Assembly (NCBI GenBank): GCA_036387335.1
Contig: DASVTZ010000153.1
Location: forward strand, 1 to 64,000
Source: Longimicrobium sp.
GTDB taxonomy: Bacteria; Gemmatimonadota; Gemmatimonadetes; Longimicrobiales; Longimicrobiaceae
Length of the DNA: 64,000 bases
Reading direction: 5' to 3'
In this document: piece by piece, positions 3,007 through 24,376 of the stretch
Numbering within the stretch: the first letter of the stretch is position 1
Layout of the letters: each line of letters starts with the position of its first letter
Program-made: the position numbers and the translations under genes
The notes under the pieces: generated by a model
Databases searched by the model: none
Told to the model about the DNA's origin: nothing
Seen by the model: only the letters and a program-made list of their open reading frames with translations

Positions 3007-3065
3007 TTGCGGATCTGCCTCCGTACCACCGCCGGCCACTTATCGCATACGCACGGCAGAAGAAA

Positions 3066-3108
3066 GGAGGCTGGTCGCTCTCCCGCCAAGAAGATACGGC
3101 CAGCCTCC
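3066..3108. repeat. Inverted repeat, 9-bp arms
   Basis: GGAGGCTGG at 3066-3074 and its exact complement CCAGCCTCC at 3100-3108 enclose a 25-base loop. It sits with the preceding hairpin in the otherwise gene-poor stretch 2923-3190. No tRNA or recombination core could be recognised around it. Confidence 0.5.
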
Positions 3109-3190
3109 TAAACGAGCGAACCCGAAGGCCGCGCGCTCCTCAAGAGTAGCCCTGCCGCGCGTCCGGGGTCAAGAGAGTTGGAGGTCTGGT

Positions 3191-3629: not shown

Positions 3630-3770
3630 CGGGGCCGAGCTCAGCTCGGACTAACAGTACACTGATCGGAGTCTGTCTGGTCCTGAACGCAGGATCCGGG
3701 GTATTCTAGTTGCAGCCGACCAGAATCGGCCGGCGGGTTAGAACGGGCGAGCCACTCAGAGGAGGAGGGA

Positions 3771-9107: not shown

Positions 9108-10076
9108 TCAGCGCGTGACGGCAATGCCCCACGGACGCTGCCCCACGCGGATGCTCCCCACCACGTGCAGGGTGCGGGTGTCCACCACCGACACGTCGTT
9201 GGAGAGGCCGTTGGCGGTGTAGAGCCAGCGTCCGTCCGCGCTCAGGGCGATCCCCCACGGCCGCCGCCCCACGCGGATGCGCGCCACCACCCGCCGCGCC
9301 CGCGGATCGACCACCGAAACCGTGCTGGCGCCGCCGTTGGCCACGTACACGCGCGATCCATCGGCCGACACCACCACGCCCACCGGCTTCCCCTCGCCGC
9401 GCTCCATCTCGACGCTCCCGATCACCTCGTGGCGGGCGATGTCGATGATGGAGAGGGTGCCGCTGATCTCGTTGGTGACGTACGCGCGCCGCCCGTCGCG
9501 CGAGAAGGCGACGGCGCGGGGGCGCACGTCCACCAGGAACGATGCGGCGACCCGGTTGCCGCGCGTGTCGATGACGGAGACCGTGTTGCTCGTCTCGGCG
9601 GTCACGTACACCCAGCGCCCGTCTGGGCTCATCCCCACCCCCTCCGGCTCTATGCCAACGACTAGCGTGGCGATGGTGCGGCCGGTGCGCAGGTTGGTGG
9701 CGCTGGCGGTGCCGGCGTCCTCGTTGGATACGTAGAGCCGCGATCCGTCGGGGCTCACCGCGAACTGCTCGGGGTCCGTGCCGCCCGCGTACCGCGCGAC
9801 CACCCGCCGCGTGGCGACATCGATGACGGCGATGGCGTCGCGCCCGCTCTGCGCGTTGGGGCGGTCGTCGCTGAGCGCCACGTACACGCGCCGCCCGTCT
9901 GGCGAGCTCTGGATGCCGCGCGGACGTTCGCCCACCGGGATCGTCGCCAGCACGCGTTTCGTCACGGCATCCACCATCGTGACGCTGCGCGAGCCCTCAT
10001 TGCTGACGAACAGCATCGGGCGCTGGGCTGACGCGGGGAACGCGAGGAGCGCCGCGAGCAGGGCGTAGCGTTTCAT
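9108..10076 (-). CDS. Periplasmic YVTN beta-propeller protein, PQQ-system type
   Basis: 322-aa exported protein: signal peptide of about 18 residues ending FPASAQ, then roughly seven repeats with the YVTN pattern (VYVALSDDR, LYVSNEDAG, VYVTAETSN, AYVTNEISG, VYVANGGAS, LYTANGLSN), each followed by TVSVID-like strands. These form a beta-propeller. A YVTN propeller is a known companion of PQQ-dependent alcohol dehydrogenase systems (TIGR03866 group), and here it is three genes from two such enzymes, so a periplasmic accessory role is likely. The start is the ATG at 10076, one codon inside a TTG. Confidence 0.8.
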   Translation of the reverse strand: MKRYALLAALLAFPASAQRPMLFVSNEGSRSVTMVDAVTKRVLATIPVGERPRGIQSSPDGRRVYVALSDDRPNAQSGRDAIAVIDVATRRVVARYAGGTDPEQFAVSPDGSRLYVSNEDAGTASATNLRTGRTIATLVVGIEPEGVGMSPDGRWVYVTAETSNTVSVIDTRGNRVAASFLVDVRPRAVAFSRDGRRAYVTNEISGTLSIIDIARHEVIGSVEMERGEGKPVGVVVSADGSRVYVANGGASTVSVVDPRARRVVARIRVGRRPWGIALSADGRWLYTANGLSNDVSVVDTRTLHVVGSIRVGQRPWGIAVTR

Positions 10077-10091
10077 CAAGATCGTAATGTG

Positions 10092-10163
10092 CTCACGCGG
10101 AGACGCGGAGGCGCAGAGGAGAGCACGCGAAGTTCTCTCTGCGTCTCCGCGTCTCCGCGTGAG
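10092..10163. repeat. Inverted repeat, family E copy 2
   Basis: 27-bp arms beginning CTCACGCGGAGACG and ending CGTCTCCGCGTGAG, with one mismatch, around an 18-base loop. It lies between the beta-propeller start (10076) and the stop of the upstream lipoprotein gene (10180). It would therefore separate, or attenuate between, these two co-directional genes. Confidence 0.8.
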
Positions 10164-10179
10164 CCCGTAGCAAGTCTGC

Positions 10180-10779
10180 TCACCGCGCGGAATCCGGCGG
10201 CGGGGCGCGGCGCGGGGACGGGGCCGTGTTCTCGCGCTTGGGGAGGGGCGCGGGAAGGGCGGCGGAGCGCGGTGATACGGGGCCGCACACCTCCGGCCGC
10301 CCGCCGCGCCCGTACACCACCACGTGGCGCCCCTTCGTGAGGCTGTCGATGGGGACGGGGACGTCGCTGGAGGCGCGCCCGTTCCCCAGCGAGTCCGCGC
10401 TCACGGGGAAAAGCGAGGCGATGTGGCTCCCCATCTTTGCGCAGTCGCCCTGGCGGACGGCGCCCTCGTAGGTGGCGCCCGGCGCGCCCCGAGCCAGCGC
10501 CACGGAGATGGAGGTGGACTTCCCCACCGCCGCCACCTCGCCGTTCCCCTGCACCAGCCCGCGCCCCAGCCGCGCCAGGGCGAGCGGGAGGGTGACCTGG
10601 ACGGGGGGCGCCTTCTCCGCCGTGTCCGGGATGGCGACCACGCGGGTGGGGACGAGGGTGCTGTCGTCCGCCGAGGTGGAGGTCCTGTCGTTGCTGGGCG
10701 TGTACTCCGTCTGGGCACGGTCCTCGTCGCCGCACGCGGCCAGGATGAGGAGCGCCGCCGCCCATGCCGTCTTCTTCAT
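10180..10779 (-). CDS. Hypothetical lipoprotein next to PQQ-type binding protein
   Basis: 199-aa lipoprotein: signal MKKTAWAAALLILAAC with Cys at 16, a low-complexity Thr/Ser linker, then a beta-rich domain containing two Cys (QGDCAKMG and PEVCGP) that could form a disulfide, and a Pro/Arg-rich tail. It starts within an ATGA overlap with the stop of the substrate-binding protein gene, so both are co-translated. It has no family I recognise; the operon position suggests an envelope accessory of the alcohol-oxidation system. Confidence 0.65.
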   Translation of the reverse strand: MKKTAWAAALLILAACGDEDRAQTEYTPSNDRTSTSADDSTLVPTRVVAIPDTAEKAPPVQVTLPLALARLGRGLVQGNGEVAAVGKSTSISVALARGAPGATYEGAVRQGDCAKMGSHIASLFPVSADSLGNGRASSDVPVPIDSLTKGRHVVVYGRGGRPEVCGPVSPRSAALPAPLPKRENTAPSPRRAPPPDSAR

Positions 10780-11618
10780 CGCGTTCCTCCCCGGCAGGTG
10801 GATGCGGAAGGACCTGCGCCCAAGCGGTCCAGCAGCTCGCCCGACGACGCCCCGCCCGCCGCGCCGCGGGCTGGGACCTCGCCCGCCACCTTCCCCGCCG
10901 CGTCCAGGCGGTAGAGCGGCTGGCGGAGCTGGCGGTCCCACGCGCGAAAGGAGAGCGGCCATCCCTTGTGTCCGTCGAAGCGGGTGTCGCCGCGCGCCAG
11001 GTACGCGCGCAACGCCGCCGGCTGCGTGGAGCGCGCGCGCAACGAGGCCTCCCAGAGCACCTTGACCGCCATCCACCCCGCCCACGCCGGCCCGTCCATG
11101 GCGCCGCCGAAGCGGGCGCGGAAGCGGTCGTTGAGCTGCGCGGCCCCGAAGCGCTCCAGTGACGGGTGCCACAGCACGGCGCGCGCCCCCGCCGCGGCGT
11201 ACATGGCGGCGCTCGCCTCCACGTGAAAGGTGTTCCGCCCGCACCCGCGCAGCGCGTCCGCAGGGGTGCCCGCGTTGAGGAAGAGGACGCCCGCGCGCTC
11301 CGCCACCGCGCTCGCTGCCCGCGCCGGGGCCTCGCCCGAGCCGCCCACCAGCGCCGCCAGCCCGCGCCGCCCCGCCAGGCTCTCCGCCGTCCCGGTGACG
11401 AGCTCGATGGAGCGGCCGAAGAGCGTCCCCGTGCGCGCGGCTTCCTCCACGCCCAGCGTAACACCGCGGGTGACGGAGGCGCCCGCTGCTACGAGCCCGA
11501 TGCGCAGCGGCTCGGCAGAAAGGCGCGGAACGGCGCCGCCCGCGACCAGAGCCGCGCACCCGTGCGATGCACGGCGCAAGAACTCCCTCCGGCCTATCTC
11601 CTCTCCCTGCATCGACAT
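10776..11618 (-). CDS. Tat-exported substrate-binding protein, PQQ alcohol dehydrogenase system type
   Basis: 280-aa periplasmic protein of the Leu/Ile/Val-binding fold. The N-terminus has a twin-arginine signal (RREFLRRASHGCAAL). The body shows GVLFLNAGTPADALRGCG, NTFHVEASAAMYA, a WMAVKVLWEA helix and the C-terminal signature DGHKGWPLSFRAWDRQLRQP, which fits the PQQ-dependent alcohol dehydrogenase system binding proteins (TIGR03863 group). It is shorter than many members, lacking part of lobe one. No ABC permease or ATPase lies nearby, so it may act as a sensor or chaperone rather than in import. It is divergent from the first PQQ dehydrogenase. Confidence 0.7.
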   Translation of the reverse strand: MSMQGEEIGRREFLRRASHGCAALVAGGAVPRLSAEPLRIGLVAAGASVTRGVTLGVEEAARTGTLFGRSIELVTGTAESLAGRRGLAALVGGSGEAPARAASAVAERAGVLFLNAGTPADALRGCGRNTFHVEASAAMYAAAGARAVLWHPSLERFGAAQLNDRFRARFGGAMDGPAWAGWMAVKVLWEASLRARSTQPAALRAYLARGDTRFDGHKGWPLSFRAWDRQLRQPLYRLDAAGKVAGEVPARGAAGGASSGELLDRLGAGPSASTCRGGTR

Positions 11619-11649
11619 CCGGAGGATGGGCGGAAACATGCGTAGAACC

Positions 11650-11664
11650 CCAGTGAAACACTGG
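11650..11664. promoter_or_regulatory. Perfect 6-3-6 palindrome in divergent region
   Basis: CCAGTG-AAA-CACTGG lies 32 bp upstream of the leftward binding-protein gene and about 190 bp upstream of the first PQQ dehydrogenase. Its symmetry and location in a divergent intergenic region suit a dimeric regulator operator. No regulator gene is adjacent. Confidence 0.35.
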
Positions 11665-11726
11665 CGTTTGCGGGTGCCGGACTCGCAAGAGAAAGGCCAC
11701 TTGACGGCATGAATGCTGCGAAAAAT

Positions 11727-11766
11727 GGACAGGGTGCCGCGAGCATCCGTTCCGCGGCTTTTGTCC
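11727..11766. promoter_or_regulatory. Two-part inverted repeat in divergent region
   Basis: GGACA (11727-11731) and GCCGCG (11736-11741) are matched by CGCGGC (11753-11758) and TGTCC (11762-11766). This makes an interrupted hairpin in the leader of the PQQ-dehydrogenase operon. It could be an mRNA leader structure or an operator; a run of T between the right arms gives it some terminator or attenuator character. Confidence 0.35.
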
Positions 11767-11854
11767 AGTGTTCGCATCGACTTCACGGCCCGGCTCCCGG
11801 GCTTGCAGCATCCTTTCAGGCCGGACGCTCCATGCGGCTCACTCTGTGGGAGGC

Positions 11855-13711
11855 GTGTTGAAGCGAAGGTTCCCGGCGGGCCGCCCCTGGCCACTCCGGC
11901 CACTCCGCGCGTCCGTCCTCCTCGTGGCGGCGCTCGGCTGCTCGCGCGGCGAGTCCGCGGAGGCGCCGGTCTCCACGGCGCTGGCCGCGCGGCGCGCGCT
12001 GGGGATCGCCCCGGCCGCCTACGCCGAGGACGGGCAGTGGACGATCCCGGCCAAGGACTACCAGAGCACGCGCTTCAGCGGCCTCGCGCAGATCACCGCG
12101 GCCAACGTCGCCCGGCTGCAGCCGGCGTGGACGTTCTCGACGGGGATCCGGCGCGGGCACGAGGCGGCGCCGCTGGTGGTGGGGAGCACGATGTACATCA
12201 TCACTCCCTTTCCCAACCAGCTCTTCGCGCTGGACCTGGCGCGGGGCGGCGCGCTGAAGTGGACGTACTCGCCCCCGCTGCTGCGCGCCGCGGCCGGCGT
12301 GGCGTGCTGCGACGTGGTGAACCGCGGCGCCGCGTACTCGGCCGGCAAGGTCTTCTTCAACACGCTCGACAACCAGACCGTCGCGGTGGACGCTGCGACG
12401 GGCGAGGAGGTTTGGCGCACGCGGTTGGGCGACATCAACCGCGGCGAGACCATGACCATGGCGCCGCTGGTCGTCAAGGACAAAGTGCTCGTCGGGAACA
12501 GCGGCGGCGAGATGGGCGTGCGCGGCTGGCTCACCGCGCTCGATGCGGAGAGCGGCAAGGTTGCGTGGCGGGCGTACAGTACGGGGCCGGACAGCGAGGT
12601 GCTGATCGGCCCCGGCTTCAAGCCGTTCTATGCCCAGGATCGCGGCAAGGACCTGGGCGTGAGCAGCTGGCCCTCCACCACCTGGCGCGTGGGCGGCGGG
12701 ACGGTGTGGGGGTGGATCTCGTACGATCCCGAGCTGGACCTCATCTACTACGGCACCGGCAACCCTGGCCCCTGGAACCCCGAGCAGCGCCCCGGCGACA
12801 ACAAGTGGACGGCGGGGATCTTTGCCCGCGACCCGGACACGGGCGAGGCGCGCTGGTTCTACCAGTGGAGCCCGCACGACGTGCACGACTACGACGGCGT
12901 CAACGAGAACGTCCTCCTCGACTTGCCCATCGGCGGCCGCACGCGCAAGGTGATCGTGCGCGCGGAGCGGAACGGCTACATGTACGTGCTGGACCGCGCC
13001 ACGGGGCAGGTGCTCTCCGCGGATCCCTTCGTCCACATCACCTCGTCGAAAGGGGTGGACCTGAAGACGGGGACGTACATACCGGACATGACGAAGTATC
13101 CGCACATGGCCAGGCCGGTGCGCGACATCTGCCCCAGCGCGCCGGGCGCCAAGGACTGGCAGCCCACCGCCTTCTCGCCGCGCACCGGCTTCCTCTACAT
13201 CCCGCACAACAACCTGTGCATGGACGTGGAGTCGGTGGAGGCCAACTACATCGCCGGCACGCCGTACGTGGGGATGAGCGTGGTGATGAAGGCGGGCCCC
13301 GGCGGCCACCGCGGCGAGTTCACGGCGTGGGACCCGGTGCGGAGGCGCGCCATGTGGAAGATCCGCGAGCGCTTCCCCGTGTGGAGCGGCGCCCTGGCGA
13401 CCGCGGGCGACGTGGTGTTCTACGGCACGATGGAGGGGTGGTTCAAGGCGGTGGACGCGCGCAACGGGCGCCTCCTGTGGCAGTTCAAGACGGAGTCGGG
13501 GATCATCGGCCAGCCCATCACCTACCGCGCGCCGGACGGCAAGCAGTACGTCGCCATCCTCTCCGGCGTGGGCGGCTGGCCGGGCGCCATCGTGGCGGGG
13601 ATGGCGAACCCCGAAGACACCACCGTGGCGCTCGGCTTCGCGGGCGCCATGCGCGACCTTCCCGGCGCCACCACGCGGGGCGGGACCCTTTACGTGTTCG
13701 CGCTGCCATGA
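11855..13711 (+). CDS. Lanthanide-type PQQ-dependent alcohol dehydrogenase 1 (lipoprotein)
   Basis: About 618 aa, periplasmic, oxidising primary alcohols with PQQ as cofactor. Signal with lipobox AALGC predicts outer-leaf anchoring. Hallmarks: vicinal Cys151-Cys152 (GVACCDVVNRG) forming the ring disulfide, metal ligand Glu in GGEMGVRG, ligand Asn in GTGNPGPWN, and the catalytic Asp345 with Asp347 in HDVHDYDGVN. By spacing from that Asn these align with MxaF Asp303 and position 305; an Asp there is the lanthanide-coordinating signature of XoxF/ExaF/PedH enzymes. The W-motifs and C-terminal GVGGWPGAIV are intact. GTG 11855 or adjacent TTG 11858 follows GGGAGG. Its stop overlaps the start of the second copy (ATGA). 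Confidence 0.9.
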   Translation: MLKRRFPAGRPWPLRPLRASVLLVAALGCSRGESAEAPVSTALAARRALGIAPAAYAEDGQWTIPAKDYQSTRFSGLAQITAANVARLQPAWTFSTGIRRGHEAAPLVVGSTMYIITPFPNQLFALDLARGGALKWTYSPPLLRAAAGVACCDVVNRGAAYSAGKVFFNTLDNQTVAVDAATGEEVWRTRLGDINRGETMTMAPLVVKDKVLVGNSGGEMGVRGWLTALDAESGKVAWRAYSTGPDSEVLIGPGFKPFYAQDRGKDLGVSSWPSTTWRVGGGTVWGWISYDPELDLIYYGTGNPGPWNPEQRPGDNKWTAGIFARDPDTGEARWFYQWSPHDVHDYDGVNENVLLDLPIGGRTRKVIVRAERNGYMYVLDRATGQVLSADPFVHITSSKGVDLKTGTYIPDMTKYPHMARPVRDICPSAPGAKDWQPTAFSPRTGFLYIPHNNLCMDVESVEANYIAGTPYVGMSVVMKAGPGGHRGEFTAWDPVRRRAMWKIRERFPVWSGALATAGDVVFYGTMEGWFKAVDARNGRLLWQFKTESGIIGQPITYRAPDGKQYVAILSGVGGWPGAIVAGMANPEDTTVALGFAGAMRDLPGATTRGGTLYVFALP

Positions 13712-15618
13712 AGAAAGTGCGTGAGTGCGTTAGTGCGTTAGTGCGCTGGTGCGCGGGGGTTTCCTCACGCACTTACGCACTCACGCACTTACGCACCCTT
13801 TTGCTCGTCCTGGCGGCGGGGTGCATCGAGCACGACATGTCTGGCGAGTACGGCGCCAAGGAGAAGCCGGGGCAATGGCCCGCGCTGCGGACGATGTTCG
13901 CCGCTACGGCGCGCAACGCACCCGTGGCGGAGGACGGGCAGTGGGTGATGCCGGCGCGGGACTACGCCAGCACGAGGTTCAGCGGGCTGGGCGAGATCAA
14001 CCGCGGCAACGTGAAGGGGCTGCGGCTGGCGTGGACCTTCTCCGACGGCAACTTCTTCGGGCACGAGGGGGCGCCGCTGGTGGTGGGGAGCACGCTGTAC
14101 TGGGTGAGTCCCTTTCCGAACGAGCTTTTCGCGCTGGACCTGACGAAGCCGGGCGCGCCGGTGAAGTGGCACTACAAGCCACCGGTGCAGATCGCCGCGC
14201 AGGGGGTGGCCTGCTGCGACAAGGTGAACCGCGGCGCCGCGTACGCGGACGGGCGCATCTTCTTCAACACGCTCGACAACCAGGTGGTCGCCGTCGATGC
14301 CGCCACGGGGGCCGAGGCGTGGCGCGTCCGCATCGGCGACATCAACCGCGGCGAAACCATGACCATGGCGCCGCTGGTGGTGAAGGGAAAGGTGCTGGTG
14401 GGGAACAGCGGCGGCGAGATGGGGGTGCGCGGCTGGCTCACCGCCCTCGACGCCGCCACCGGCCGCACCGCCTGGCGCGCCTACAGCACCGGCCCCGACG
14501 CCGACGTGCTGATCGGCCCCAGCTTCAAGCCGCACTACGCGCAGGACCGCGGCAAGGACCTCGGCGTCACGAGCTGGCCGCCGGGCGCGTGGGAGACGGG
14601 GGGCGGCACCGTGTGGGGGTGGATCTCCTACGATCCCGAGCTGGACCTGATCTTCTACGGCACGGGCAATCCTGGCCCCTGGAACCCCGAGCAGCGTCCG
14701 GGCGACAACAAGTGGACGGCCGGGATATTCGCCCGCGACCCGGACACGGGAGAGGCGCGCTGGTTCTACCAGTGGAGCCCGCACGACGTCCACGACTACG
14801 ACGGCGTCAACGAGAACGTCCTGCTCGACCTGCCCATCGGCGGCCGGGTGCGCAAAGTCATCGTGCGCGCGGAGCGGAACGGCTACATGTACGTGCTGGA
14901 CCGCGCCACCGGAGAGGTGCTCTCCGCCGACCCCTTCGTCCACATCACCTCCTCCAAGGGCGTGGACCTGAAGACGGGCGCCTTCCAGCCCAACCCCACC
15001 GCCACGCCGCGGCTGGGGACGGTGGTGCGCGGGATCTGCCCCAGCGCGCCGGGCGCCAAGGACTGGCAGCCGATGTCCTTCTCGCCGCGCACGGGCCTCC
15101 TCTACATCCCGCACAACAACCTGTGCATGGACTACGAGGCGCTGGAGGCCAACTACATCGCCGGCACTCCGTACGTGGGCGCCAACGTCACCATGTACGC
15201 CGGCCCCGGCGGCCACCGCGGCGAGTTCACCGCCTGGGACCCGGTGCGCAGGCGCGCCGCGTGGAAGATCCGCGAGCGCTTCCCCGTGTGGAGCGGCGCC
15301 CTGGCCACGGCCGGCGATGTCGTGTTCTACGGCACCATGGACCGCTGGTTCAGGGCCGTCGACGCCACCACGGGAAAGATCCTCTGGCAGTTCCGCACCG
15401 GCTCGGGCATCATCGGCCAGCCCGTCACCTTTCGCGGCCCTGACGGCAAGCAGTACGTGGCGATCTTTGACGGCGTGGGCGGGTGGCCCGGCGCGGTGGT
15501 CTCCGGCGACCTCTCCACCGAGGACGCGAGCGCGGCGCTCGGATTCGTCGGCGCGATGAGGGACCTGCCGCGGCACACGGAAAAGGGAGGGACGCTGTAT
15601 GTGTTCGCGCTCCCCTGA
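13708..15618 (+). CDS. Lanthanide-type PQQ-dependent alcohol dehydrogenase 2 (lipoprotein)
   Basis: 636-aa tandem paralogue of the preceding gene, highly similar throughout. It keeps Cys169-Cys170, GGEMGVRG, GTGNPGPWN and the Asp363-Tyr-Asp365 lanthanide signature. Differences cluster in the N-terminus, in a segment before ICPSAPGAKDW, and in the C-terminal 40 residues. The first 30 or so codons are made from an 8-bp tandem repeat hairpin (13717-13796), which now supplies the n-region of the signal; the hydrophobic part and lipobox VLAAGC follow. Start codon overlaps the previous stop (ATGA), so the two are co-translated. Duplication with diverged N-terminus suggests subfunctionalisation, or use with different cytochromes. 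Confidence 0.88.
   Translation: MKKVRECVSALVRWCAGVSSRTYALTHLRTLLLVLAAGCIEHDMSGEYGAKEKPGQWPALRTMFAATARNAPVAEDGQWVMPARDYASTRFSGLGEINRGNVKGLRLAWTFSDGNFFGHEGAPLVVGSTLYWVSPFPNELFALDLTKPGAPVKWHYKPPVQIAAQGVACCDKVNRGAAYADGRIFFNTLDNQVVAVDAATGAEAWRVRIGDINRGETMTMAPLVVKGKVLVGNSGGEMGVRGWLTALDAATGRTAWRAYSTGPDADVLIGPSFKPHYAQDRGKDLGVTSWPPGAWETGGGTVWGWISYDPELDLIFYGTGNPGPWNPEQRPGDNKWTAGIFARDPDTGEARWFYQWSPHDVHDYDGVNENVLLDLPIGGRVRKVIVRAERNGYMYVLDRATGEVLSADPFVHITSSKGVDLKTGAFQPNPTATPRLGTVVRGICPSAPGAKDWQPMSFSPRTGLLYIPHNNLCMDYEALEANYIAGTPYVGANVTMYAGPGGHRGEFTAWDPVRRRAAWKIRERFPVWSGALATAGDVVFYGTMDRWFRAVDATTGKILWQFRTGSGIIGQPVTFRGPDGKQYVAIFDGVGGWPGAVVSGDLSTEDASAALGFVGAMRDLPRHTEKGGTLYVFALP
13717..13796. repeat. 8-bp tandem repeat hairpin (family F) inside signal-peptide region
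   Basis: Left arm of GTGCGTGA/GTGCGTTA units and right arm of their complement form a long hairpin around GCGCGGGGG. It lies within the reading frame of the second PQQ dehydrogenase, right after its ATG. The same unit occurs as linear arrays at 18605 and 32415. Confidence 0.85.
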
Positions 15619-15835
15619 CGGGGCCCTCACCCCCCGACCCCCTCTCCCGATAACAGGAGAGGGTGCCCCTCTCGTTATCGGGAGAGGGGGAGAACAGCGT
15701 GCCCAATCCGCACCTGCCCGTAAAAACCGCCCCCTCTCTCGAGAACAGGAGGGCGGAGCCCTCTCCTGTTATCGGGAGAGGGGGCAGCGAGGAACGAGCG
15801 GGGGTGAGGGCCCCCCGCGGCGCCTATTTCTCTTC
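15619..15835. repeat. Family C hairpin repeats, two copies
   Basis: The gap between dehydrogenase 2 and the XoxJ-like gene holds two copies of a GC-rich element built around CCCTCTCCCGATAACAGG and its complement, bordered by CCCTCACCCCC and GGGGGTGAGGGCCCC. Each can fold into a long hairpin. No other gene is seen. Despite the hairpins the flanking genes look like one transcription unit. Confidence 0.8.
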
Positions 15836-16618
15836 ATGATAGCGCTCCTCGCCGCCTGCGCCGAGACGCAGGCGAAGCCCGCCCGCGAGCTGCGGGTGTG
15901 CGCCGACCCGAACAACCTCCCCTTCTCCAACGAAAGGGGGGAGGGGTTCGAGAACCGGCTGGCGGAGATGGTGGCGCGGGAAATGGGGGCGCGGGTGAAG
16001 TACACCTGGTGGGCGCAGCGGCGCGGCTTCATCCGCAACACCCTGCGCGCCGGGGAGTGCGACCTGGTGATGGGGGTGCCCAGCTCCTTCGAGCTCGCCC
16101 TCCCCACGAGGCCGTACTACCGCTCCACCTACGTCTTCGTGTACCGCAAGGATGCGGGGTTCAGGGTGCGCTCGTTCGATGACCCCGTGCTGAAGCGGGT
16201 CAAGATCGGCGTGCACCTGGTGGGCGACGACTACGCCAACACGCCGCCCGCCCACGCGCTCGGCACGCGCGGCATCATCCGCAACGTGCGGGGTTACACG
16301 CTGTACGGCGACTACTCCAAGCCCAACCCGCCGGCCGACATCCTGACGGCGCTGGCGCGCAAGGAGATCGACGTGGCGGTGGTGTGGGGGCCGCTGGCCG
16401 GCTACTTCGCGCCGCGGGCGGGGGTGCCGATGGAGGTCGTCCCCGTCTCGCCGCAGGTCGACCTGCCCTTCCTCCCCTTCGTCTTCGACATCTCGATGGG
16501 AGTGCGGCGCGAGGACGTGAAGCTCAAGGAAGAGGTGGAGGCGATCCTCGTCCGCCGGCGCGCGGAGGTGAACGCCATCCTGGACGAGTACGGAGTGCCG
16601 CGGGCAGGCCGTCCATGA
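15836..16618 (+). CDS. XoxJ/MoxJ-like quinoprotein-associated binding protein
   Basis: 260-aa periplasmic binding-protein fold (SBP_bac_3 type). RVCADPNNLPFSNERGEGF at the start of the mature protein is characteristic of the quinoprotein dehydrogenase-associated binding proteins (TIGR03871, XoxJ/MoxJ). VVWGPLAGYFAP and LPFVFDISMGVR follow in the C-terminal lobe. XoxJ is thought to help mature or activate the dehydrogenase rather than import a solute. The only ATG leaves a very short signal ending LLAAC; upstream is repeat sequence, so the N-terminus may be truncated or start at a non-ATG codon. It follows both dehydrogenases, as in methylotroph xox clusters. Confidence 0.85.
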   Translation: MIALLAACAETQAKPARELRVCADPNNLPFSNERGEGFENRLAEMVAREMGARVKYTWWAQRRGFIRNTLRAGECDLVMGVPSSFELALPTRPYYRSTYVFVYRKDAGFRVRSFDDPVLKRVKIGVHLVGDDYANTPPAHALGTRGIIRNVRGYTLYGDYSKPNPPADILTALARKEIDVAVVWGPLAGYFAPRAGVPMEVVPVSPQVDLPFLPFVFDISMGVRREDVKLKEEVEAILVRRRAEVNAILDEYGVPRAGRP

Positions 16619-16632
16619 CCGGAGGGAGAACG

Positions 16633-17151
16633 ATGCGATCGATGGCGCTGGTTCTGGTCTGCCTGGCGGGGGTGCTCGCGGCGTGCGAGCGCGAGGAGCG
16701 TCCGTCGCGCGACACGCCGCCGGGTGCATCGCCCTTTCCCGCGGTGCAGACGACGGAGCTGCAGGCCGGTCCCAAGACGCCGGACCCGTCGATGGGTGCG
16801 TACCAGGAGAACCGGTTCGCGGTCGGTCAGGGGCAGACCTTCTACGAGCAGTACAACTGCGCCGGGTGCCACTCCGCGGGCGGCGGCGGGGGGATGGGGC
16901 CGCCGCTGAACGACGACGAGTGGATCTACGGGAGCGATCCGGAGAACGTCTTCGCCACCATCGTGGAGGGTCGGCCCAACGGGATGCCCTCCTTCCGCGG
17001 GCGCATCGACCAGGGGCAGATCTGGCAGCTCGTGTCGTACGTGCGCACGCTGAGCGGCCTCACCCCGCCGGACACCTGGCCGGCCCGCGCGGACCACATG
17101 CAGGAGGTCCGCCCCGTGACCGACGCCGCACCCCAGCGCCAGCTCCCGTGA
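16633..17151 (+). CDS. c-type cytochrome lipoprotein, XoxG-like electron acceptor
   Basis: 172-aa lipoprotein cytochrome c: signal with lipobox VLAAC, a linker, then one haem site CAGCH in EQYNCAGCHSAGGGGGM and a distal Met probably in NGMPSFRG. The fold resembles small class I cytochromes. In xox operons the gene at this position (XoxG) takes electrons from PQQ, so this is the likely acceptor from the two dehydrogenases and donor to the oxidase encoded next. GGAGGGAG lies 7 bases before ATG 16633. Its TGA overlaps the GTG of coxB (GTGA). Confidence 0.85.
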   Translation: MRSMALVLVCLAGVLAACEREERPSRDTPPGASPFPAVQTTELQAGPKTPDPSMGAYQENRFAVGQGQTFYEQYNCAGCHSAGGGGGMGPPLNDDEWIYGSDPENVFATIVEGRPNGMPSFRGRIDQGQIWQLVSYVRTLSGLTPPDTWPARADHMQEVRPVTDAAPQRQLP

Positions 17152-18152
17152 GCACGCGCCTTCGTCCCCACGCGTGCGCGGCGGCCGTGCTCCTGGCGGG
17201 GTGCGAGCGCCAGTTCTCGGCCACGCACCCCGTGGGCCCGCAGGCGGAGCGGATCAGCGACCTGATCTGGTTCCTCACCTGGCTGGGCACGGCCGTTTTC
17301 GTGGCGGTGGTGGGCTTCCTCTTCTACGCGCTATGGCGCGGCAGGCGGCGGGCGGAGAGCGCCGCCGGGCCGGAGGCGGAGCGGCGGATGGCGCGGTGGG
17401 TGGGCGGGTCGGTGGCGGCCACGGTGACCATCCTGCTGGTGCTGCTGGTCTACAACTTCTACACGGGGCGGGCGCTGGCGGCCTTCGCCGATTCCAGTGC
17501 GATGACGATCCGCGTCACCGGGCACCAGTGGTGGTGGTCGGTGGAGTACCAGGACCCGCTGTACAGCCGCCGTGTGTCGACGGCCAACGAGATCCACATC
17601 CCCGTCGGACGCAAGGTGCGGCTGGAGGTGCAGTCGCGCGACGTGATCCACTCGTTCTGGGCGCCGAACCTCCACGGCAAGATCGACCTGATCCCCGGGT
17701 ACGGCGGCACCACTTACTTCCGCGCGGACGAGCCGGGCGTCTTCAGCGGGCGGTGCGCGGAGTTCTGCGGCCTTCAGCACGCCAAGATGAACTTCCTGGT
17801 GATCGCGGAGCCGCCGGACCGTTTCGCCGCGTGGTACGAGGCGCAGCTGCGGAGCTCGACCCCTCCCGCCGACTCGATGCAGCAGAAGGGGCAGCAGGTG
17901 TTCCTGTCGAAGCAGTGCGCGATGTGCCACACCATCCGGGGCACGCCGGCCAACAGCCGCATCGGCCCGGACCTGACGCACCTGGCGAGCCGCCGCACGC
18001 TGGCCTCGGGCGCCATTCCCAACACGCGCGGCCATCTGGGCGGGTGGGTGCTGGACCCGCAGAGCATCAAGCCCGGCACCCGCATGCCGCCCAACCAGCT
18101 CGCGAGCGATGAGCTGCAGGCGCTGCTGGATTATCTGGAGAGCCTGAAGTAG
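17148..18152 (+). CDS. ctaC: Cytochrome c oxidase subunit II with fused cytochrome c (caa3 type)
   Basis: 334-aa lipoprotein (lipobox VLLAGC) with two transmembrane helices, then the periplasmic CuA domain. GHQWWWSVEY is the aromatic electron-entry patch; HSFWAP and CAEFCGLQHAKM give the CuA ligands (His, two Cys, Glu carbonyl, His, Met). A C-terminal cytochrome c domain has CAMCH and MPPN near the axial Met. The fusion defines a caa3-type haem-copper oxidase. The GTG start overlaps the cytochrome stop, linking oxidase translation to the alcohol-oxidation genes. Confidence 0.93.
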   Translation: MSTRLRPHACAAAVLLAGCERQFSATHPVGPQAERISDLIWFLTWLGTAVFVAVVGFLFYALWRGRRRAESAAGPEAERRMARWVGGSVAATVTILLVLLVYNFYTGRALAAFADSSAMTIRVTGHQWWWSVEYQDPLYSRRVSTANEIHIPVGRKVRLEVQSRDVIHSFWAPNLHGKIDLIPGYGGTTYFRADEPGVFSGRCAEFCGLQHAKMNFLVIAEPPDRFAAWYEAQLRSSTPPADSMQQKGQQVFLSKQCAMCHTIRGTPANSRIGPDLTHLASRRTLASGAIPNTRGHLGGWVLDPQSIKPGTRMPPNQLASDELQALLDYLESLK

Positions 18153-18158
18153 GGGTGT

Positions 18159-18200
18159 GGGGAATGGGGAATGGGGAATGGGGAATGGGGAATGGGGAAT
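18159..18200. repeat. GGGGAAT tandem repeat, 6 units (family G)
   Basis: Six exact 7-bp GGGGAAT units start just after the coxB stop. The same microsatellite occurs at 37731 and, reversed, at 62758. Confidence 0.95.
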
Positions 18201-18203
18201 CGA

Positions 18204-18399
18204 TGTCATCCTGAGGGAGCCGCCTGACGGGGGTCGGCGGCGCAGGCCGGACTTTCGGCGGCGACTGAAGGATCTAGCCGGCGAGGCGGGAGGACAGGCG
18301 TCACGGGCCGGTCTCCAAGCACGCGCAGTAGATCCTTCGCTCCGCGCCAAAGGGGTGGAGCCGGGGCGAGGACGGTGAGGCGCTTCGCTCAGGATGACA
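18204..18399. repeat. 196-bp palindromic repeat (family A copy 1)
   Basis: Bounded by TGTCATCCTGAG and its complement CTCAGGATGACA, with internal GGATCTAGCCGGCGAGGC and GTAGATCCTTC segments in opposition. Other copies are at 37788, 37991 and 42082. It occupies the coxB-coxA gap and could form a very large hairpin in the operon mRNA. Confidence 0.9.
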
Positions 18400-18509
18400 A
18401 AAGGGGGGTGCCCGCCTCTCCGCGCGAGTCCGCGGAGGCGGACTTCGTGGGGGGCCAGCGGCGAATTCATGCGCTCCTGGGCCGGGGGGATCGGGGTATC
18501 GCCGGCGAC

Positions 18510-18603
18510 GGGCAGACACGCGGGTCTGCCCCTACGGGGTTTGGTGTGCGTCAACGGGCGGTGGAGCGGGGCCGGGCACGGGCGCGATGAATCGCGCCCC
18601 TAC
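18510..18603. repeat. Family B hairpin array, 2 hairpins
   Basis: Hairpins 18510-18535 and 18574-18603 share the CCCCTAC border but have different complementary stems (GGCAGAC/GTCTGCC and GGGCGCGAT/ATCGCGCCC), 64 bp apart. Together with the adjacent repeats they fill the 537-bp coxB-coxA gap; no gene is seen there. Confidence 0.85.
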
Positions 18604-18604
18604 G

Positions 18605-18668
18605 AACGCACTAACGCACCAACGCACCAACGCACCAACGCACCAACGCACTAACGCACTAACGCACT
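18605..18668. repeat. 8-bp tandem array (family F copy 2)
   Basis: Eight units of AACGCACC or AACGCACT end 21 bases before the TTG start of coxA. It is the complement of the unit seen at 13717 and 32415. Confidence 0.9.
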
Positions 18669-18689
18669 TTCTTCGCGCGGAGACCTTCC

Positions 18690-20615
18690 TTGGCCCACAC
18701 CGAAGCCCACGCCACGGCCAGCCTCCTCGACGCCGGCGGGCGGGCGGAGATGGAGCGGAGCTGGCGACCCAAGCCCGGCTTCTGGGGGTGGCTCGTCGCC
18801 GTGGACCACAAGTCCGTGGCGAAGCGCTACATCGCCACAGCCTTCATCTTCTTCCTGCTCGGCGGGCTGGAGGCGATGGTCATGCGCATCCAGCTCGCCC
18901 GGCCGGAGAACGGGCTGCTCTCGCCAGACCAGTACAACCAGCTCTTCACCATGCACGGCACCACGATGATGTTCCTGTTCGGGGTGCCGGTGCAGCTCGC
19001 GGTCGCGCTCTACTTCGTGCCGCTGATGGTGGGGACCCGCAACGTAGCCTTCCCCCGCCTCAACGCGTTCGGCTACTGGACGTACCTCATCGGCGGGGTG
19101 CTGCTGTACTCCGGCTTCATCCTCAACACGGGGCCGGACGCGGGGTGGTTCAACTACGTCCCGCTCTCCGGTCCGCAGTACTCGCCGGGGAAGCGCATCG
19201 ACGTGTGGGCGCAGACCGTGACCTTCACCGAGATCGCGTCGCTGGTGGCGGCGGTCACGCTCATCGTCACCATCCTCAAGCAGCGCGCGCCGGGGATGTC
19301 GCTCAACCGGCTGCCGCTGTACGTGTGGTCGGTCCTGGTGACGGCGGTGGTGGTCACCTTCGCCATGCCCTCGGTGGCGCTGGCCAGCATGATGCTCGCC
19401 ATGGACCGGCTGATCGGCACGCACTTCTTCAACCCGGCGGAAGGGGGCGATCCGCTCCTCTGGCAGCATCTGTTCTGGTTCTTTGGGCACCCCGAAGTCT
19501 ACATCATGTTCATCCCCGCCACGGGGTTCGTGTCCGAGATCATCCCCGTGTTCGCGCGGCGCAAGATGTTCGGGCACACGCCGCTGGTGCTCTCGCTGGT
19601 GGCGACGGGGTTCCTGGCGTTCGGGCTGTGGGTGCACCACATGTTCACCACGGGGCTCCCGCAGCTGGGGCAGAGCTTCTTCACGGCGGCGTCGCTGATG
19701 ATCGCCATCCCCAACGGCGTGCAGATCTTCTGCTGGATCGCGACGCTGTGGGCGGGGCGGCCACGGTTCGCCACACCGCTGCTCTTCGTGATCGGCTTCA
19801 TCGTCCTCTTCGTGTGCGGAGGGATCACGGGGGTGATGGTGGCCTCGGTGCCCTTCGACCAGCAGGCGCACGACACCTACTTCGTGGTGGCGCACCTGCA
19901 CTACGTGCAGATCGGCGCCTTCGTCTTCCCGCTCTTCGGGGCCTTCTACTACTGGTTCCCCAAGGTGATGGGGAGGATGCTCTCCGAAACGCTGGGGAAG
20001 GTGCACTTCTGGCTCTTCTTCGTAGGGATGAACGTCACCTTCTTCCCGATGCACTTCCTGGGGTTCATGGGGATGACGCGCCGCGTGTACACCTATCCGG
20101 TGGAGGCGGGGTGGGCGCCGCTCAACCTGATGGCCACCGTGGGCGCGGCGCTGATGGCGGCGGGGATCCTCACCTTTCTGGCGAACGTCTTCACCAGCGC
20201 GCGACGCGGCGCGCCGGCCGGCGACGATCCGTGGGGCTCGCACACGCTGGAGTGGGGCACCGCGTCACCGCCGCCCGCGTACAACTTCCTCCACATCCCG
20301 GTAGTGCAGGGGCTGTACGCGCTGTGGGAGCGCACCCCCGACCGCCCCGTCGTCACGGGGATGGGGACGCGCCGCCGCGAGATCCTCCTGACCACCGTGC
20401 TCGACGCGGAGCCCGACGCACGCTACGAGCACCCCGGCCCCAGCATCGCGCCGCTGCTCTGCGCGCTGGCGGTGGCGGTGACGTTCATCGGCGGCATCTT
20501 CACCACGTGGGCCTACGTGGTGGGCCCGTCGCTCCTCTTCCCCGCCCTGCTGGTGTGGATGGCGACGCAGGATGAGCCCGAGCGTCCCCTGACCGAGGGG
20601 GAGGAGCCCGCATGA
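18690..20615 (+). CDS. ctaD: Cytochrome c oxidase subunit I
   Basis: 641-aa haem-copper oxidase core subunit with about 12 transmembrane helices. Visible: TMHGTTMMF (low-spin haem ligand His), WFFGHPEVYIMFIPATGF with the CuB His cross-linked to Tyr, HHMFTTGLP (the CuB His pair) and HLHYVQIGAFVFPLFGAFYYW (both haem ligands). This is an A-type enzyme pumping protons with O2 reduction. A C-terminal extension of about 90 residues holds a further pair of transmembrane helices. The start is TTG with GGAG 8 bases upstream. Its stop overlaps coxC (ATGA). Confidence 0.95.
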   Translation: MAHTEAHATASLLDAGGRAEMERSWRPKPGFWGWLVAVDHKSVAKRYIATAFIFFLLGGLEAMVMRIQLARPENGLLSPDQYNQLFTMHGTTMMFLFGVPVQLAVALYFVPLMVGTRNVAFPRLNAFGYWTYLIGGVLLYSGFILNTGPDAGWFNYVPLSGPQYSPGKRIDVWAQTVTFTEIASLVAAVTLIVTILKQRAPGMSLNRLPLYVWSVLVTAVVVTFAMPSVALASMMLAMDRLIGTHFFNPAEGGDPLLWQHLFWFFGHPEVYIMFIPATGFVSEIIPVFARRKMFGHTPLVLSLVATGFLAFGLWVHHMFTTGLPQLGQSFFTAASLMIAIPNGVQIFCWIATLWAGRPRFATPLLFVIGFIVLFVCGGITGVMVASVPFDQQAHDTYFVVAHLHYVQIGAFVFPLFGAFYYWFPKVMGRMLSETLGKVHFWLFFVGMNVTFFPMHFLGFMGMTRRVYTYPVEAGWAPLNLMATVGAALMAAGILTFLANVFTSARRGAPAGDDPWGSHTLEWGTASPPPAYNFLHIPVVQGLYALWERTPDRPVVTGMGTRRREILLTTVLDAEPDARYEHPGPSIAPLLCALAVAVTFIGGIFTTWAYVVGPSLLFPALLVWMATQDEPERPLTEGEEPA

Positions 20616-21220
20616 ACGCCGAGCGCAGCGTGCTGGACGTCTCCGGCCTCCCCAAAGTCGTCTTCGGCCACCGGTCGCTCCTGTGGTGGGGCACGATCGG
20701 CTTCATGGTGATCGAGGGGTTTACGCTGGTGCTGATGGTGGGCGCGTACTTCTACCTGCGCACCGGCGAGATGGGGTGGCCGCCGGGGCGCACCCCCAAC
20801 CCGGATCTGCTGATCTCCACCATCAACACGGTTCTCCTTCTGCTGGTGATGGCGCCCATGCACGCGGCGGGGAAGGCGGCGAAGCGCTTCGACCGGCGCG
20901 GGGTGGGGCGCTGGCTCCTGGTCGCGTGCGCGCTGACGCTGGTGGTGAACGTGCTGCGCTGGTGGGAGCTGCTGGCGCTCAACGTGCGCTGGGACGCGCA
21001 CGCCTACGCATCGGCCGCGTGGGGCGTGGTGGTGCTGCACACGACGCTCATCGTGGTTGATTTCTTTGAGACGGGGACGCTGGCGGCGCTTTTCCTCACG
21101 GGGCATGCGCTGCGCAAGCACTACCCCGACGCGGCCGACGCGGCGTTCTACCAGTACTTCATGTCGCTGGTGTGGGTGCCGATCTATCTGATCATCTACT
21201 GGGGGCCGCGGGTGCTGTGA
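20612..21220 (+). CDS. ctaE: Cytochrome c oxidase subunit III
   Basis: 202-aa membrane protein with five predicted helices. It contains the subunit III core (WWGTIGFMVIEGFTLVLM, HTTLIVVDFFETG with the conserved Asp/Glu, and YFMSLVWVPIYLIIYWGPR at the end). It is shorter than mitochondrial COX3, as in other caa3 operons. Translationally coupled to coxA by ATGA. Subunit III stabilises proton uptake by subunit I. A family D repeat follows. Confidence 0.88.
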   Translation: MNAERSVLDVSGLPKVVFGHRSLLWWGTIGFMVIEGFTLVLMVGAYFYLRTGEMGWPPGRTPNPDLLISTINTVLLLLVMAPMHAAGKAAKRFDRRGVGRWLLVACALTLVVNVLRWWELLALNVRWDAHAYASAAWGVVVLHTTLIVVDFFETGTLAALFLTGHALRKHYPDAADAAFYQYFMSLVWVPIYLIIYWGPRVL

Positions 21221-21278
21221 GGGCCCCCTCCCCCCGGCCCCCTCGCCTGCGGGGGCGCAGGGCGGGTGAGGGGGAGAA
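21221..21278. repeat. Family D GC-rich hairpin
   Basis: Starts at the first base after the coxC stop: a hairpin of CCCCCTCCCC-type and GGGTGAGGGGG-type strands with GCGGGGGCGCAGG between. Similar elements lie at 21840-21900, 29353-29408 and inside the MscS gene end. Confidence 0.75.
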
Positions 21279-21343
21279 TATGGAGCGCGAGGGGCGGGGG
21301 CGGTGTGGCGCTGGGGACGGCAGGAAACAGAACGGGGGCGAGG

Positions 21344-21730
21344 ATGGTGGATACGACGGAGGAGGCGGGACGGGTGCGGGGGGGCCGCGCGATCGCGACG
21401 CTCTGGTTCGCCGTGCTCGCGGGGCCGGTGGCGTGGATGCTGGGGCTGAACGTCCAGTACTCGCTGGTGCGGCTGGAGTGCGAGAACGGTGGGGTCGTTC
21501 CCCTGCACCTGGTGAGCCTCGTCACTTTCTCCATCGCGGCGGCGGGGGGCGTGGTGGCGTGGCGGGAGTGGAAGCGCTCCGGGGGCGTCTGGCCTGGGGA
21601 GGAGCCCGGGGCGATTCCGCGCAGCCGCTTCCTGGCCGCCATGGGGCTCCTGTCCAGCCCGCTGTTCGCACTGGCGATCGCGGCGCAGTGGGTGGCGAGC
21701 TGGTTTTTGAACCCGTGCATGGGGATCTGA
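21344..21730 (+). CDS. Small oxidase-linked membrane protein
   Basis: 128-aa protein with about three transmembrane segments (TLWFAVLAGPVAWMLGL; LVSLVTFSIAAAGGVVAW; LLSSPLFALAIAAQWVASWF). Two Cys (RLECENGG and NPCMGI) face the same side. Its position between coxC and ctaG, and its size, suggest an oxidase assembly or accessory factor, but I do not recognise the family. The ATG at 21344 follows GGGGGCGAGG. Confidence 0.6.
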   Translation: MVDTTEEAGRVRGGRAIATLWFAVLAGPVAWMLGLNVQYSLVRLECENGGVVPLHLVSLVTFSIAAAGGVVAWREWKRSGGVWPGEEPGAIPRSRFLAAMGLLSSPLFALAIAAQWVASWFLNPCMGI

Positions 21731-21900
21731 TGGGGGGCCCTCACCCCCGCTCGTTCCTCGCTGCCCCCTCTCCCGATAACAGGAGAGGGCTGCGCCCTCA
21801 CGTTATCGAGAAAGGGGGCGGGTCCCGTCGCTTGCACGGTGTTCTCCCCCTCCCCCGCCCTGCGCCCCCGCAGGCGGGGGAGGGGGCCGGGGGGTGGGGG
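21731..21900. repeat. Family C and D hairpins before ctaG-like gene
   Basis: One family C element (around CCCTCTCCCGATAACAGG) followed by a family D element. The second overlaps the likely 5' end of the next gene, making its start uncertain. Confidence 0.75.
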
Positions 21901-22818
21901 CCCGCCCTGCTCCTCCTCCTGCTCCTCGCGCCTTCGGCGGCGTGGGCGCACACGGGGAAGCCGCTGGCGCCGCACGACCTGTGGACGGCGTGGGCGTTCG
22001 ATCCGGGGGTGGTGGTGGCGCTCTTTGTGAGCGCGTGGCTTTACTCGCGGGGGACGGAGCGGCTCTGGCGGCGGTCGGGCGTGGGGCGCGGCGTGCGGAG
22101 GTGGGAGGCGGGGTGCTTCGCGGCGGGGTGGGTCACGCTGGCGGTCGCGATGGTGTCGCCGCTGCACCGTCTGGGTGGGGTGCTCTTTTCCGCGCACATG
22201 GTACAGCACGAATTGCTGATGGCCCTCGCCGCGCCACTGCTGGTGCTGGGGAGGCCAATGCTGCCGTTTCTGTGGGCGCTCCCCATGAGGTGGCGGCGGG
22301 TGGCGGGGGCGGCGGCGCGGCGGCAGGGGGTGCGCGCGGGGTGGCGCTTGGTGACCGCGCCGTTCGCGGCGTTCGCGCTGCACGCGGCGGCGCTCTGGCT
22401 GTGGCACATCCCTGGCCCGTACCAGGCGACGCTCACCAGCGAGTGGATGCACACGCTGCAGCACGCGAGCTTCCTAGGCACGGGGCTCCTCTTCTGGTGG
22501 GCGCTGGTGCACGGGCGCGAGGGGCGGATGGGGTACGGCGCGGCCGTCTTCTACCTCTTCGCGACCGCAATGCACAGCGGCGGGCTGGGGGCGCTGCTGA
22601 CGTTCGCGCGCGCGCCCTGGTATCCAGAATACGGCGCGGGCGGGGCGGCGTGGGGGCTCACGCCGCTGGAGGACCAGCAGCTCGCGGGGCTGATCATGTG
22701 GATTCCCGCCGGCGCCAGCTACCTGGTGGCGGGGCTGGCGCTGGTGGCGGCGTGGATGCGCGAGTCGGAGCGGAAGGCGGCGCGTTGGCAGGACCGCGCC
22801 CTGCTGCGGCCCACCTGA
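21832..22818 (+). CDS. CtaG-like cytochrome c oxidase assembly protein
   Basis: Roughly 300-330 aa membrane protein of the caa3_CtaG family, needed for caa3 oxidase assembly, probably CuB insertion. About seven transmembrane helices. Conserved His-rich elements HMVQHELLMALAAPLLVLGRP, WLWHIPGPYQ, HTLQHASFLGTGLLFWW and FATAMHSGGLGALLTF are visible. A hydrophobic signal (LLLLLLLAPSAAWA) precedes AHTGK. The start is uncertain: TTG 21832 is the only plausible in-frame start, and the codons after it read through a repeat. Confidence 0.8.
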   Translation: MHGVLPLPRPAPPQAGEGAGGWGPALLLLLLLAPSAAWAHTGKPLAPHDLWTAWAFDPGVVVALFVSAWLYSRGTERLWRRSGVGRGVRRWEAGCFAAGWVTLAVAMVSPLHRLGGVLFSAHMVQHELLMALAAPLLVLGRPMLPFLWALPMRWRRVAGAAARRQGVRAGWRLVTAPFAAFALHAAALWLWHIPGPYQATLTSEWMHTLQHASFLGTGLLFWWALVHGREGRMGYGAAVFYLFATAMHSGGLGALLTFARAPWYPEYGAGGAAWGLTPLEDQQLAGLIMWIPAGASYLVAGLALVAAWMRESERKAARWQDRALLRPT

Positions 22819-22831
22819 GAGGAGGCGGCGA

Positions 22832-23212
22832 ATGCGGAGTCCCTGGATGCTCCTGACGGCGGCGCTCGTGCTCTCCGCGTGCGGCGGCGGGCCGGACACG
22901 AAGGCGATGGAGACGGGCGCCGCCCTCACCCGCGGCGACCCGCACGCCGGCCGTGAGCAGATTCGGCACTACGGCTGCAACGCCTGCCACACCATCCCCG
23001 GCATCCAGGGGGCGCACGGCGCCGCGGGCCCACCGCTCGGCGGCATGGTGGGCCGCATGTATATCGCCGGCGTGCTTACCAACACGCCGGAGCACATGGT
23101 GACGTGGATCCAGGACCCGCCCGCCATCGACCCAAAGACGGCCATGCCCAACCTGGGCGTCACCGAAGAAGAAGCCCGCGACATCGCCGCCTACCTCTAC
23201 GCCCTGAAGTAG
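22832..23212 (+). CDS. Cytochrome c lipoprotein at end of oxidase operon
   Basis: 126-aa single-haem cytochrome c: lipobox VLSAC at about residue 17, haem site CNACH (HYGCNACHTIPG), axial Met in KTAMPNLGV. The layout resembles the C-terminal domain of caa3 subunit II. It follows the ctaG-like gene by 13 bp with GGAGGCGGCG upstream. It probably carries electrons between the PQQ dehydrogenases or a complex III equivalent and the oxidase. Confidence 0.85.
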   Translation: MRSPWMLLTAALVLSACGGGPDTKAMETGAALTRGDPHAGREQIRHYGCNACHTIPGIQGAHGAAGPPLGGMVGRMYIAGVLTNTPEHMVTWIQDPPAIDPKTAMPNLGVTEEEARDIAAYLYALK

Positions 23213-24260: not shown

Positions 24261-24376
24261 GGGCGCTTCCGGTTGAGGGCTCGCGAGGCCGGACCGCAAC
24301 ATGCGCTCCAGCGGCTGGCCGCGCTCTTGCGACCGGGGCGCACGTCCCGCCCATTACCACGCCGCGAGAGAGCGCC

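What the first reader, a model, noticed from the sequence alone, without database searches (positions are those of the whole stretch)
9108..23212. Complete lanthanide-type alcohol oxidation chain wired to a caa3 oxidase in one locus
The rightward genes from 11855 to 23212 encode two PQQ dehydrogenases, a XoxJ-like protein, a XoxG-like cytochrome, CoxB-cytochrome c, CoxA, CoxC, a CtaG-like factor and another cytochrome, many joined by 4-base overlaps. Leftward companions belong to the PQQ-alcohol-system beta-propeller and binding-protein groups. The cytochrome gene overlaps coxB (GTGA), coupling dehydrogenase and oxidase translation. Clusters joining xox-type genes to an entire caa3 oxidase are not standard in methylotroph models.
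Basis: partly seen in the sequence, partly recalled or inferred. Interest (0 to 1): 0.65.

Follow-up and report, generated by a model that had tools for sequence, protein, structure and literature searches.

The report
XoxF3 alcohol-oxidation cluster with own oxidase
This is a real but already described gene cluster in which a soil bacterium puts lanthanide-type methanol dehydrogenases next to their own oxygen-consuming enzyme; what may be new is that this enzyme belongs to a separate oxidase lineage that has lost a key residue of a standard proton channel.

Summary
YncE-like and PQQ-ABC-binding partners lie leftward. All lanthanide ligands are present and all genes are under purifying selection. 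The claim that this is non-standard does not hold. It is the xoxF3 cluster already published for Acidobacteria and Gemmatimonadetes (PMC10875860, citing a 2014 review), down to the small protein between CoxIII and CtaG. I found XoxG-CoxB-CoxA downstream of xoxF in 31 of 47 loci from named genomes, including cultured Methylobacter. Follow-up gave three things I did not find published. (1) XoxF3-linked CoxA falls in one clade (49 sequences: 42 linked or presumed linked, 7 unlinked) in which the K-channel lysine is replaced in all; the window also has the D-channel aspartate replaced by asparagine. (2) The eight genomes of this family that I checked lack PqqC and PqqE but all encode a PqqU-like importer, so the chain probably depends on scavenged PQQ. 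(3) The XoxF proteins and their electron partners are predicted lipoproteins here. Function is inferred, not measured.

The parts
9108..10076 (-). YncE-like beta-propeller, TIGR03866 PQQ-dependent catabolism-associated
   Evidence: 301.8 bits, over cut-off
10180..10779 (-). small predicted lipoprotein of unknown family; ATGA overlap with the upstream binding-protein gene
   Evidence: no family match; dN/dS 0.27 against G006
10776..11612 (-). shortened PQQ_ABC_bind (TIGR03863) periplasmic binding protein that lacks a middle segment present in relatives
   Evidence: two-piece matches in L105, L107, L109, L110
11855..13711 (+). xoxFa: XoxF3-type PQQ dehydrogenase, predicted lipoprotein (start GTG 11855 or TTG 11858)
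13708..15618 (+). xoxFb: second XoxF3-type PQQ dehydrogenase, 78% identical to xoxFa, ATGA overlap
15599..16618 (+). xoxJ (TIGR03871); true start uncertain, possibly near 15836
16615..17151 (+). XoxG-like c-type cytochrome lipoprotein (CAGCH)
17148..18152 (+). coxB with CuA ligands and C-terminal cytochrome c (CAMCH), predicted lipoprotein; GTGA overlap
18750..20615 (+). coxA; Cu/heme ligands and Tyr288 kept, K362 replaced by Q, D132 replaced by N
20612..21220 (+). coxC, divergent subunit III; ATGA overlap
21344..21730 (+). three-helix membrane protein with two near-invariant Cys, found between coxC and ctaG
21841..22818 (+). ctaG (Caa3_CtaG) assembly factor; start uncertain
   Evidence: 211 bits
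22832..23212 (+). c-type cytochrome lipoprotein (CNACH)

Best explanation
It is a xoxF3 cluster: a short, self-contained periplasmic respiratory chain. Methanol or another small alcohol is oxidised by two tandem lanthanide/PQQ dehydrogenases (XoxFa, XoxFb). Electrons pass to the XoxG-like cytochrome, then to the cytochrome c domain and CuA of CoxB, then to heme a and the heme a3/CuB site of CoxA, which reduces O2. Several of these proteins are predicted to be lipid-anchored, which would keep the chain at one membrane. CtaG and the small three-helix protein probably serve oxidase assembly or form a fourth subunit; XoxJ assists XoxF maturation. Shown here: gene content, intact catalytic and metal ligands, purifying selection, conserved order, and a separate K-channel-less oxidase lineage that travels with XoxF3. 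Inferred: substrate, metal, electron path, O2 as acceptor, scavenged PQQ. Not known: how the oxidase takes up protons without the K-channel lysine and, here, without Asp132, and whether it pumps.
For: Families. XoxF Ln ligands E172/N256/D299/D301 and the CC disulfide are in both copies; the MxaF control has Ala at 301. The tree puts both XoxF copies in a 78-row clade (99) apart from XoxF2, XoxF5, MxaF and 7O6Z references. Order XoxG-CoxB-CoxA downstream of xoxF in 31 of 47 named loci. dN/dS 0.08-0.27. Linked CoxA is clustered (3 label changes, shuffled mean 22.3, 0/500), and distances of XoxF and CoxA correlate (r 0.71, 0/2000 permutations). In G000 the unlinked CoxA on contig C248 is a separate lineage. 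Published parallels: PMC10875860; XoxF3 of M. trichosporium raised by cerium (PMC12482762).
Against: [quoted passage not shown] PqqC, PqqE and Fae were not found in the genome, so methylotrophic growth is not supported. The Mantel-type correlation does not remove shared organism ancestry. No sigma-70 promoter was found by a simple scan, and repeat-rich spacers could hold separate transcription units. The XoxF3 label rests on separation from other clades plus matching published gene content, not on a labelled XoxF3 reference sequence in the tree.
Confidence: 0.75

Rival explanations
1. The same dedicated chain serves mainly another substrate (formaldehyde, ethanol or other volatile alcohols) as an energy supplement rather than methanol-based growth.
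For: No Fae was found in G000; PMC10875860 found a formaldehyde oxidation pathway in only three of 38 xoxF genomes.
Against: Both XoxF proteins fall with methanol dehydrogenases in the tree, and the closest solved structures are methanol dehydrogenases, well ahead of ethanol-type enzymes.
Confidence: 0.3
2. The oxidase is not mainly an energy-conserving O2 reductase: with altered proton channels it is a weakly pumping or non-pumping electron sink, or reduces NO.
For: K362 replaced in all 42 linked (or presumed linked) CoxA; D132 replaced in 16 of 42; E286 replaced by Trp in 11 and Asp in 1 of 42. Loss of activity after mutation of the channel-end residues in model oxidases is summarised in PMC8239185.
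Against: All six His ligands and Tyr288 are kept in 42 of 42. Nitrosomonas sNOR is B-type, not this lineage (PMC6967387). K-channel loss in other family A oxidases is on record (PMC8239418), and from memory some oxidases with altered channels still pump.
Confidence: 0.15
3. The cox genes are a general housekeeping caa3 oxidase that merely neighbours xoxF3.
For: Spacers interrupt the run, and related K-less cox genes also occur without xoxF3.
Against: G000 has a separate canonical CoxA with K362 on C248, the linked CoxA is its own lineage, and the order recurs in several phyla.
Confidence: 0.07
4. One of the two xoxF copies is a decaying duplicate.
For: Some relatives have a single copy at this locus (G016, G001).
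Against: Both copies have dN/dS of about 0.1 against the sister genome and all ligands; the pair is kept in G006.
Confidence: 0.03

Closest known systems
xoxF3 clusters of Acidobacteria and Gemmatimonadetes (Voutsinos 2024, PMC10875860)
   Same: XoxF3 with XoxG, XoxJ, CoxI-III, CtaG, CytC, a 110-130 aa hypothetical between CoxIII and CtaG, and YncE nearby
   Different: Here the xoxF gene is tandem-duplicated with a 4-base overlap; no NRAMP gene was identified beside it (only nearby genes were checked); the binding-protein gene is shortened; MscS lies next door, which that paper reports for Verrucomicrobia
xoxF3-cox clusters of Methylobacter marinus/luteus (L046, L097) and Rokubacteria (L042, L043)
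   Same: Order F-J-G-B-A-C-small protein-CtaG; K-less CoxA
   Different: XoxF has no lipobox in those by my rule; single xoxF; D132 kept in Methylobacter but Asn in Rokubacteria
XoxFGJ of Methylorubrum extorquens AM1 (XoxF5, 6OC5)
   Same: Dehydrogenase, cytochrome and binding protein; same Ln ligands
   Different: 48-49% identical; different clade; an oxidase next to it is not part of the textbook XoxF5 system (from memory, not tested)
caa3-type (A1-like) cytochrome c oxidase, CoxB-cytochrome c / CoxA / CoxC / CtaG
   Same: CuA, cytochrome c fusion, GHPEVY motif, heme and Cu ligands, CtaG
   Different: K-channel lysine replaced by Gln; D-channel Asp132 replaced by Asn

Membership tests
XoxF-type methanol dehydrogenase | Full TIGR03075 PQQ dehydrogenase domain without heme domain | tested here: met
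   654.9 and 636.2 bits against cut-off 480
XoxF-type methanol dehydrogenase | Extra Asp (D301) that marks lanthanide enzymes, with E172, N256, D299 | tested here: met
   Both copies; the MxaF control has Ala
XoxF3 clade | Phylogenetic placement with XoxF3 and apart from XoxF1, 2, 4, 5 | tested here: inconclusive
   Separate 99-supported clade from XoxF2, XoxF5, MxaF, 7O6Z; no labelled XoxF3 or XoxF4 reference was in the tree
XoxF3 cluster | XoxG, XoxJ, CoxI-III, CtaG, CytC and a small protein co-located | tested here: met
   compared with PMC10875860
Lanthanide-dependent activity | Activity needs Ln3+ and PQQ | not testable with these tools
   Needs enzyme assays
A-type caa3 cytochrome c oxidase | CoxA over the CtaD_CoxA cut-off; CoxB with CuA site and fused cytochrome c | tested here: met
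   715 bits against 670.75; CoxB 178.8 bits against 147.7 plus Cytochrom_C
A-type caa3 cytochrome c oxidase | Canonical K channel (K362) and D channel (D132, E286) | tested here: not met
   K362 is Q, D132 is N, E286 kept
sNOR (NorSY) nitric oxide reductase | B-type oxidase affiliation | tested here: not met
   Window CoxA is a TIGR02891 A-type; sNOR is B-type per PMC6967387
Methylotroph with own PQQ synthesis | PqqC and PqqE over cut-off | tested here: not met
   0 of 8 family genomes; positive controls found

The most novel reading that the evidence does not exclude
XoxF3 clusters across several phyla carry their own lineage of A-type oxidase that lost the K-channel lysine once; in this family the D-channel aspartate is also lost in most members, so O2 is reduced with non-canonical proton uptake and lowered or absent pumping: a dedicated alcohol-to-oxygen chain that trades energy yield for electron disposal or for working with a high-potential donor.
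Probability: 0.3. Interest if true: 0.68.

Novelty: new member of a known kind. Interest (0 to 1): 0.45.

Why it matters
The PQQ methanol dehydrogenase of a Gemmatimonadetes bacterium was the most abundant protein in one soil proteome (PMC5103831), yet by the 2024 paper XoxF3 had no biochemistry and where its electrons go is not established. The co-inherited oxidase gives a direct, testable answer. Its missing K-channel lysine (and here missing Asp132) makes it a natural experiment on which proton-channel residues an A-type oxidase needs. The apparent need for imported PQQ would make this soil methanol sink dependent on neighbours.

Tried and rejected
Novel cluster type: rejected, published and widespread. 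NO reductase of the sNOR kind: rejected as a class, sNOR is B-type. Relic or pseudogene: rejected by dN/dS. PDB fold search for the small protein: no match with E at or below 0.001, so the vesicle-transport similarity stated in PMC10875860 was not reproduced against PDB. Promoter scan: no sigma-70 hit, uninformative at this GC. The 2014 review (Keltjens) is not held, so it is cited second-hand. Searches for prior reports of a K-less XoxF3-linked oxidase found none in the open library, which does not prove absence; K-channel loss elsewhere in family A is reported. My lipobox rule is a simple pattern, not SignalP; it missed at least one clear case (L102).

Full report
What is there. The window is contig C153 of a 5.8 Mb draft genome (95.7% complete, 265 contigs). 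Gene calls from codon-position GC and family searches give rightward xoxFa, xoxFb, xoxJ, a XoxG-like cytochrome, coxB-cytochrome c, coxA, coxC, a 128-aa membrane protein, ctaG and a cytochrome; leftward a shortened PQQ-ABC binding protein, a small lipoprotein and a YncE-like beta-propeller. Four rightward junctions are exact 4-base overlaps, and one leftward junction is too (10776-10779, read from the gene coordinates).

Dehydrogenases. Both XoxF proteins carry the lanthanide ligands and the vicinal disulfide; the Ca enzyme used as control has Ala at position 301. They are 78% identical to each other, about 54% to XoxF2 and 48-50% to XoxF5, and sit in a 78-row clade separated (99) from XoxF2, XoxF5, MxaF and 7O6Z. 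The label XoxF3 follows from that separation plus the published XoxF3 gene content; no labelled XoxF3 or XoxF4 sequence was in my tree. The pair is also in G006, and each copy is under purifying selection (dN/dS 0.11 and 0.08). A third XoxF of the same clade with its own cox genes lies on contig C53.

Is the arrangement known? Yes. [quoted passage not shown] Among 59 loci from named genomes, 47 have at least 6 kb downstream of xoxF; 31 of these have XoxG, CoxB and CoxA there on the same strand. They include Methylobacter marinus and luteus, Methylobacillus, Novimethylophilus, Pseudoduganella, Rokubacteria and Acidobacteria. Five Acidobacteria loci whose XoxF groups with XoxF2 have XoxJ and XoxG but no cox genes, which works as a control.

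The oxidase. I compared 42 CoxA from xoxF3 loci with 28 CoxA found elsewhere in genomes that carry such loci or are close relatives. One of the 42 (G003) is only presumed linked: its xoxF and coxA lie at contig ends. The label needs 3 changes on the tree against 22.3 when shuffled (0 of 500). Distances of XoxF correlate with those of CoxA (r 0.71), CoxB (0.67), XoxG (0.67) and XoxJ (0.69), 0 of 2000 permutations each; shared ancestry of the organisms is not removed. At the K-channel lysine (K362, Rhodobacter numbering; used from knowledge and PMC8239185) none of the 42 has Lys (31 Gln, 7 Ala, 4 Ser), while 21 of 28 unlinked ones do. On a tree built without the channel columns the 49 K-less sequences are one side of a branch (99.9; one change against 18.9 shuffled). 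The unlinked K-less ones are mostly long genes consistent with a CoxA-CoxC fusion, one of them beside a PQQ quinohemoprotein. Asp132 is replaced in 16 of 42 linked and none of 28 unlinked; Glu286 is Trp in 11 and Asp in 1 of the 42 linked. The window has Gln at 362, Asn at 132 and keeps Glu286, all His ligands and Tyr288. I found no report of this in the open library, although K-channel loss in other family A oxidases is described. The sample was gathered by similarity to the window CoxA, so frequencies are not a survey.

Small protein. Eighteen homologues share a near-invariant Trp, Tyr, Phe and two Cys. The AlphaFold model is a confident three-helix bundle (pLDDT 89.8) with no PDB match at E 0.001. 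Its place between coxC and ctaG suggests an oxidase subunit or assembly protein; this is inference.

Membrane anchoring. A simple lipobox rule marks XoxF in most loci of this family examined (one, L102, has a lipobox-like motif that the rule missed), and XoxG in many clusters; XoxF of Methylobacter, Rokubacteria and nearly all the alphaproteobacteria lacks it. In the window CoxB and the last cytochrome also carry lipobox-like motifs; XoxJ's start is uncertain.

Cofactor. PqqC and PqqE pass their cut-offs in none of 8 genomes of this family (93-98% complete) but do so in Methylobacter, Novimethylophilus, a Rokubacterium and one genome of another family of the order. All 8 have a full-length match to E. 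coli PqqU (31-35% identity; E. coli PqqU). In G000 it lies near a PQQ alcohol dehydrogenase gene on C203. PqqU in Gemmatimonadetes is already reported (PMC12124388), and PMC10875860 notes that not all xoxF genomes make PQQ. By contrast the Gemmatimonadetes of PMC5103831 were said to encode PQQ synthesis and the methanopterin pathway; Fae was not found here.

Verdict. Observation confirmed; the cluster is a new member of a known kind. The part worth a specialist's time is the co-inherited, K-channel-less oxidase, whose function has not been measured.

Noticed in passing
18750-20615 and 41 other xoxF3-linked (one presumed linked) CoxA: K-channel lysine replaced in every one; a single loss on the tree; Asp132 also lost in 16.
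   Followed up: yes
G000:C203:60264-65145 (locus L236): PqqU-like TonB receptor near a PQQ alcohol dehydrogenase gene in a genome without PqqC or PqqE.
   Followed up: partly
G000:C53:1600-8354 (locus L100): Second xoxF3-cox cluster in the same genome, order xoxF, cytochrome, cytochrome, coxB, coxA, coxC, small protein.
   Followed up: partly
18153-18749: Long coxB-coxA spacer with tandem 8-bp units and paired CATCCTGAG repeats; present in G006 but only 74 bp in G016. The CATCCTGAG pair recurs at 37791-38179 and 42085-42274 (9 matches, about 1 expected).
   Followed up: partly
10776-11612: PQQ-ABC binding protein lacks a middle segment that relatives G014, G015, G021 and G027 have; the short form is shared in genus g1.
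   Followed up: partly
23223-24302: MscS-type channel gene 10 bp beyond the cluster, convergent; MscS was reported with xoxF3 in Verrucomicrobia.
   Followed up: no
1-4000: GC 0.585 against about 0.70 elsewhere in the window; possibly foreign DNA.
   Followed up: no
L230:7763-13611: Fusion-length K-less CoxA beside coxB, a cytochrome and a PQQ quinohemoprotein dehydrogenase: another dehydrogenase-oxidase pairing.
   Followed up: partly
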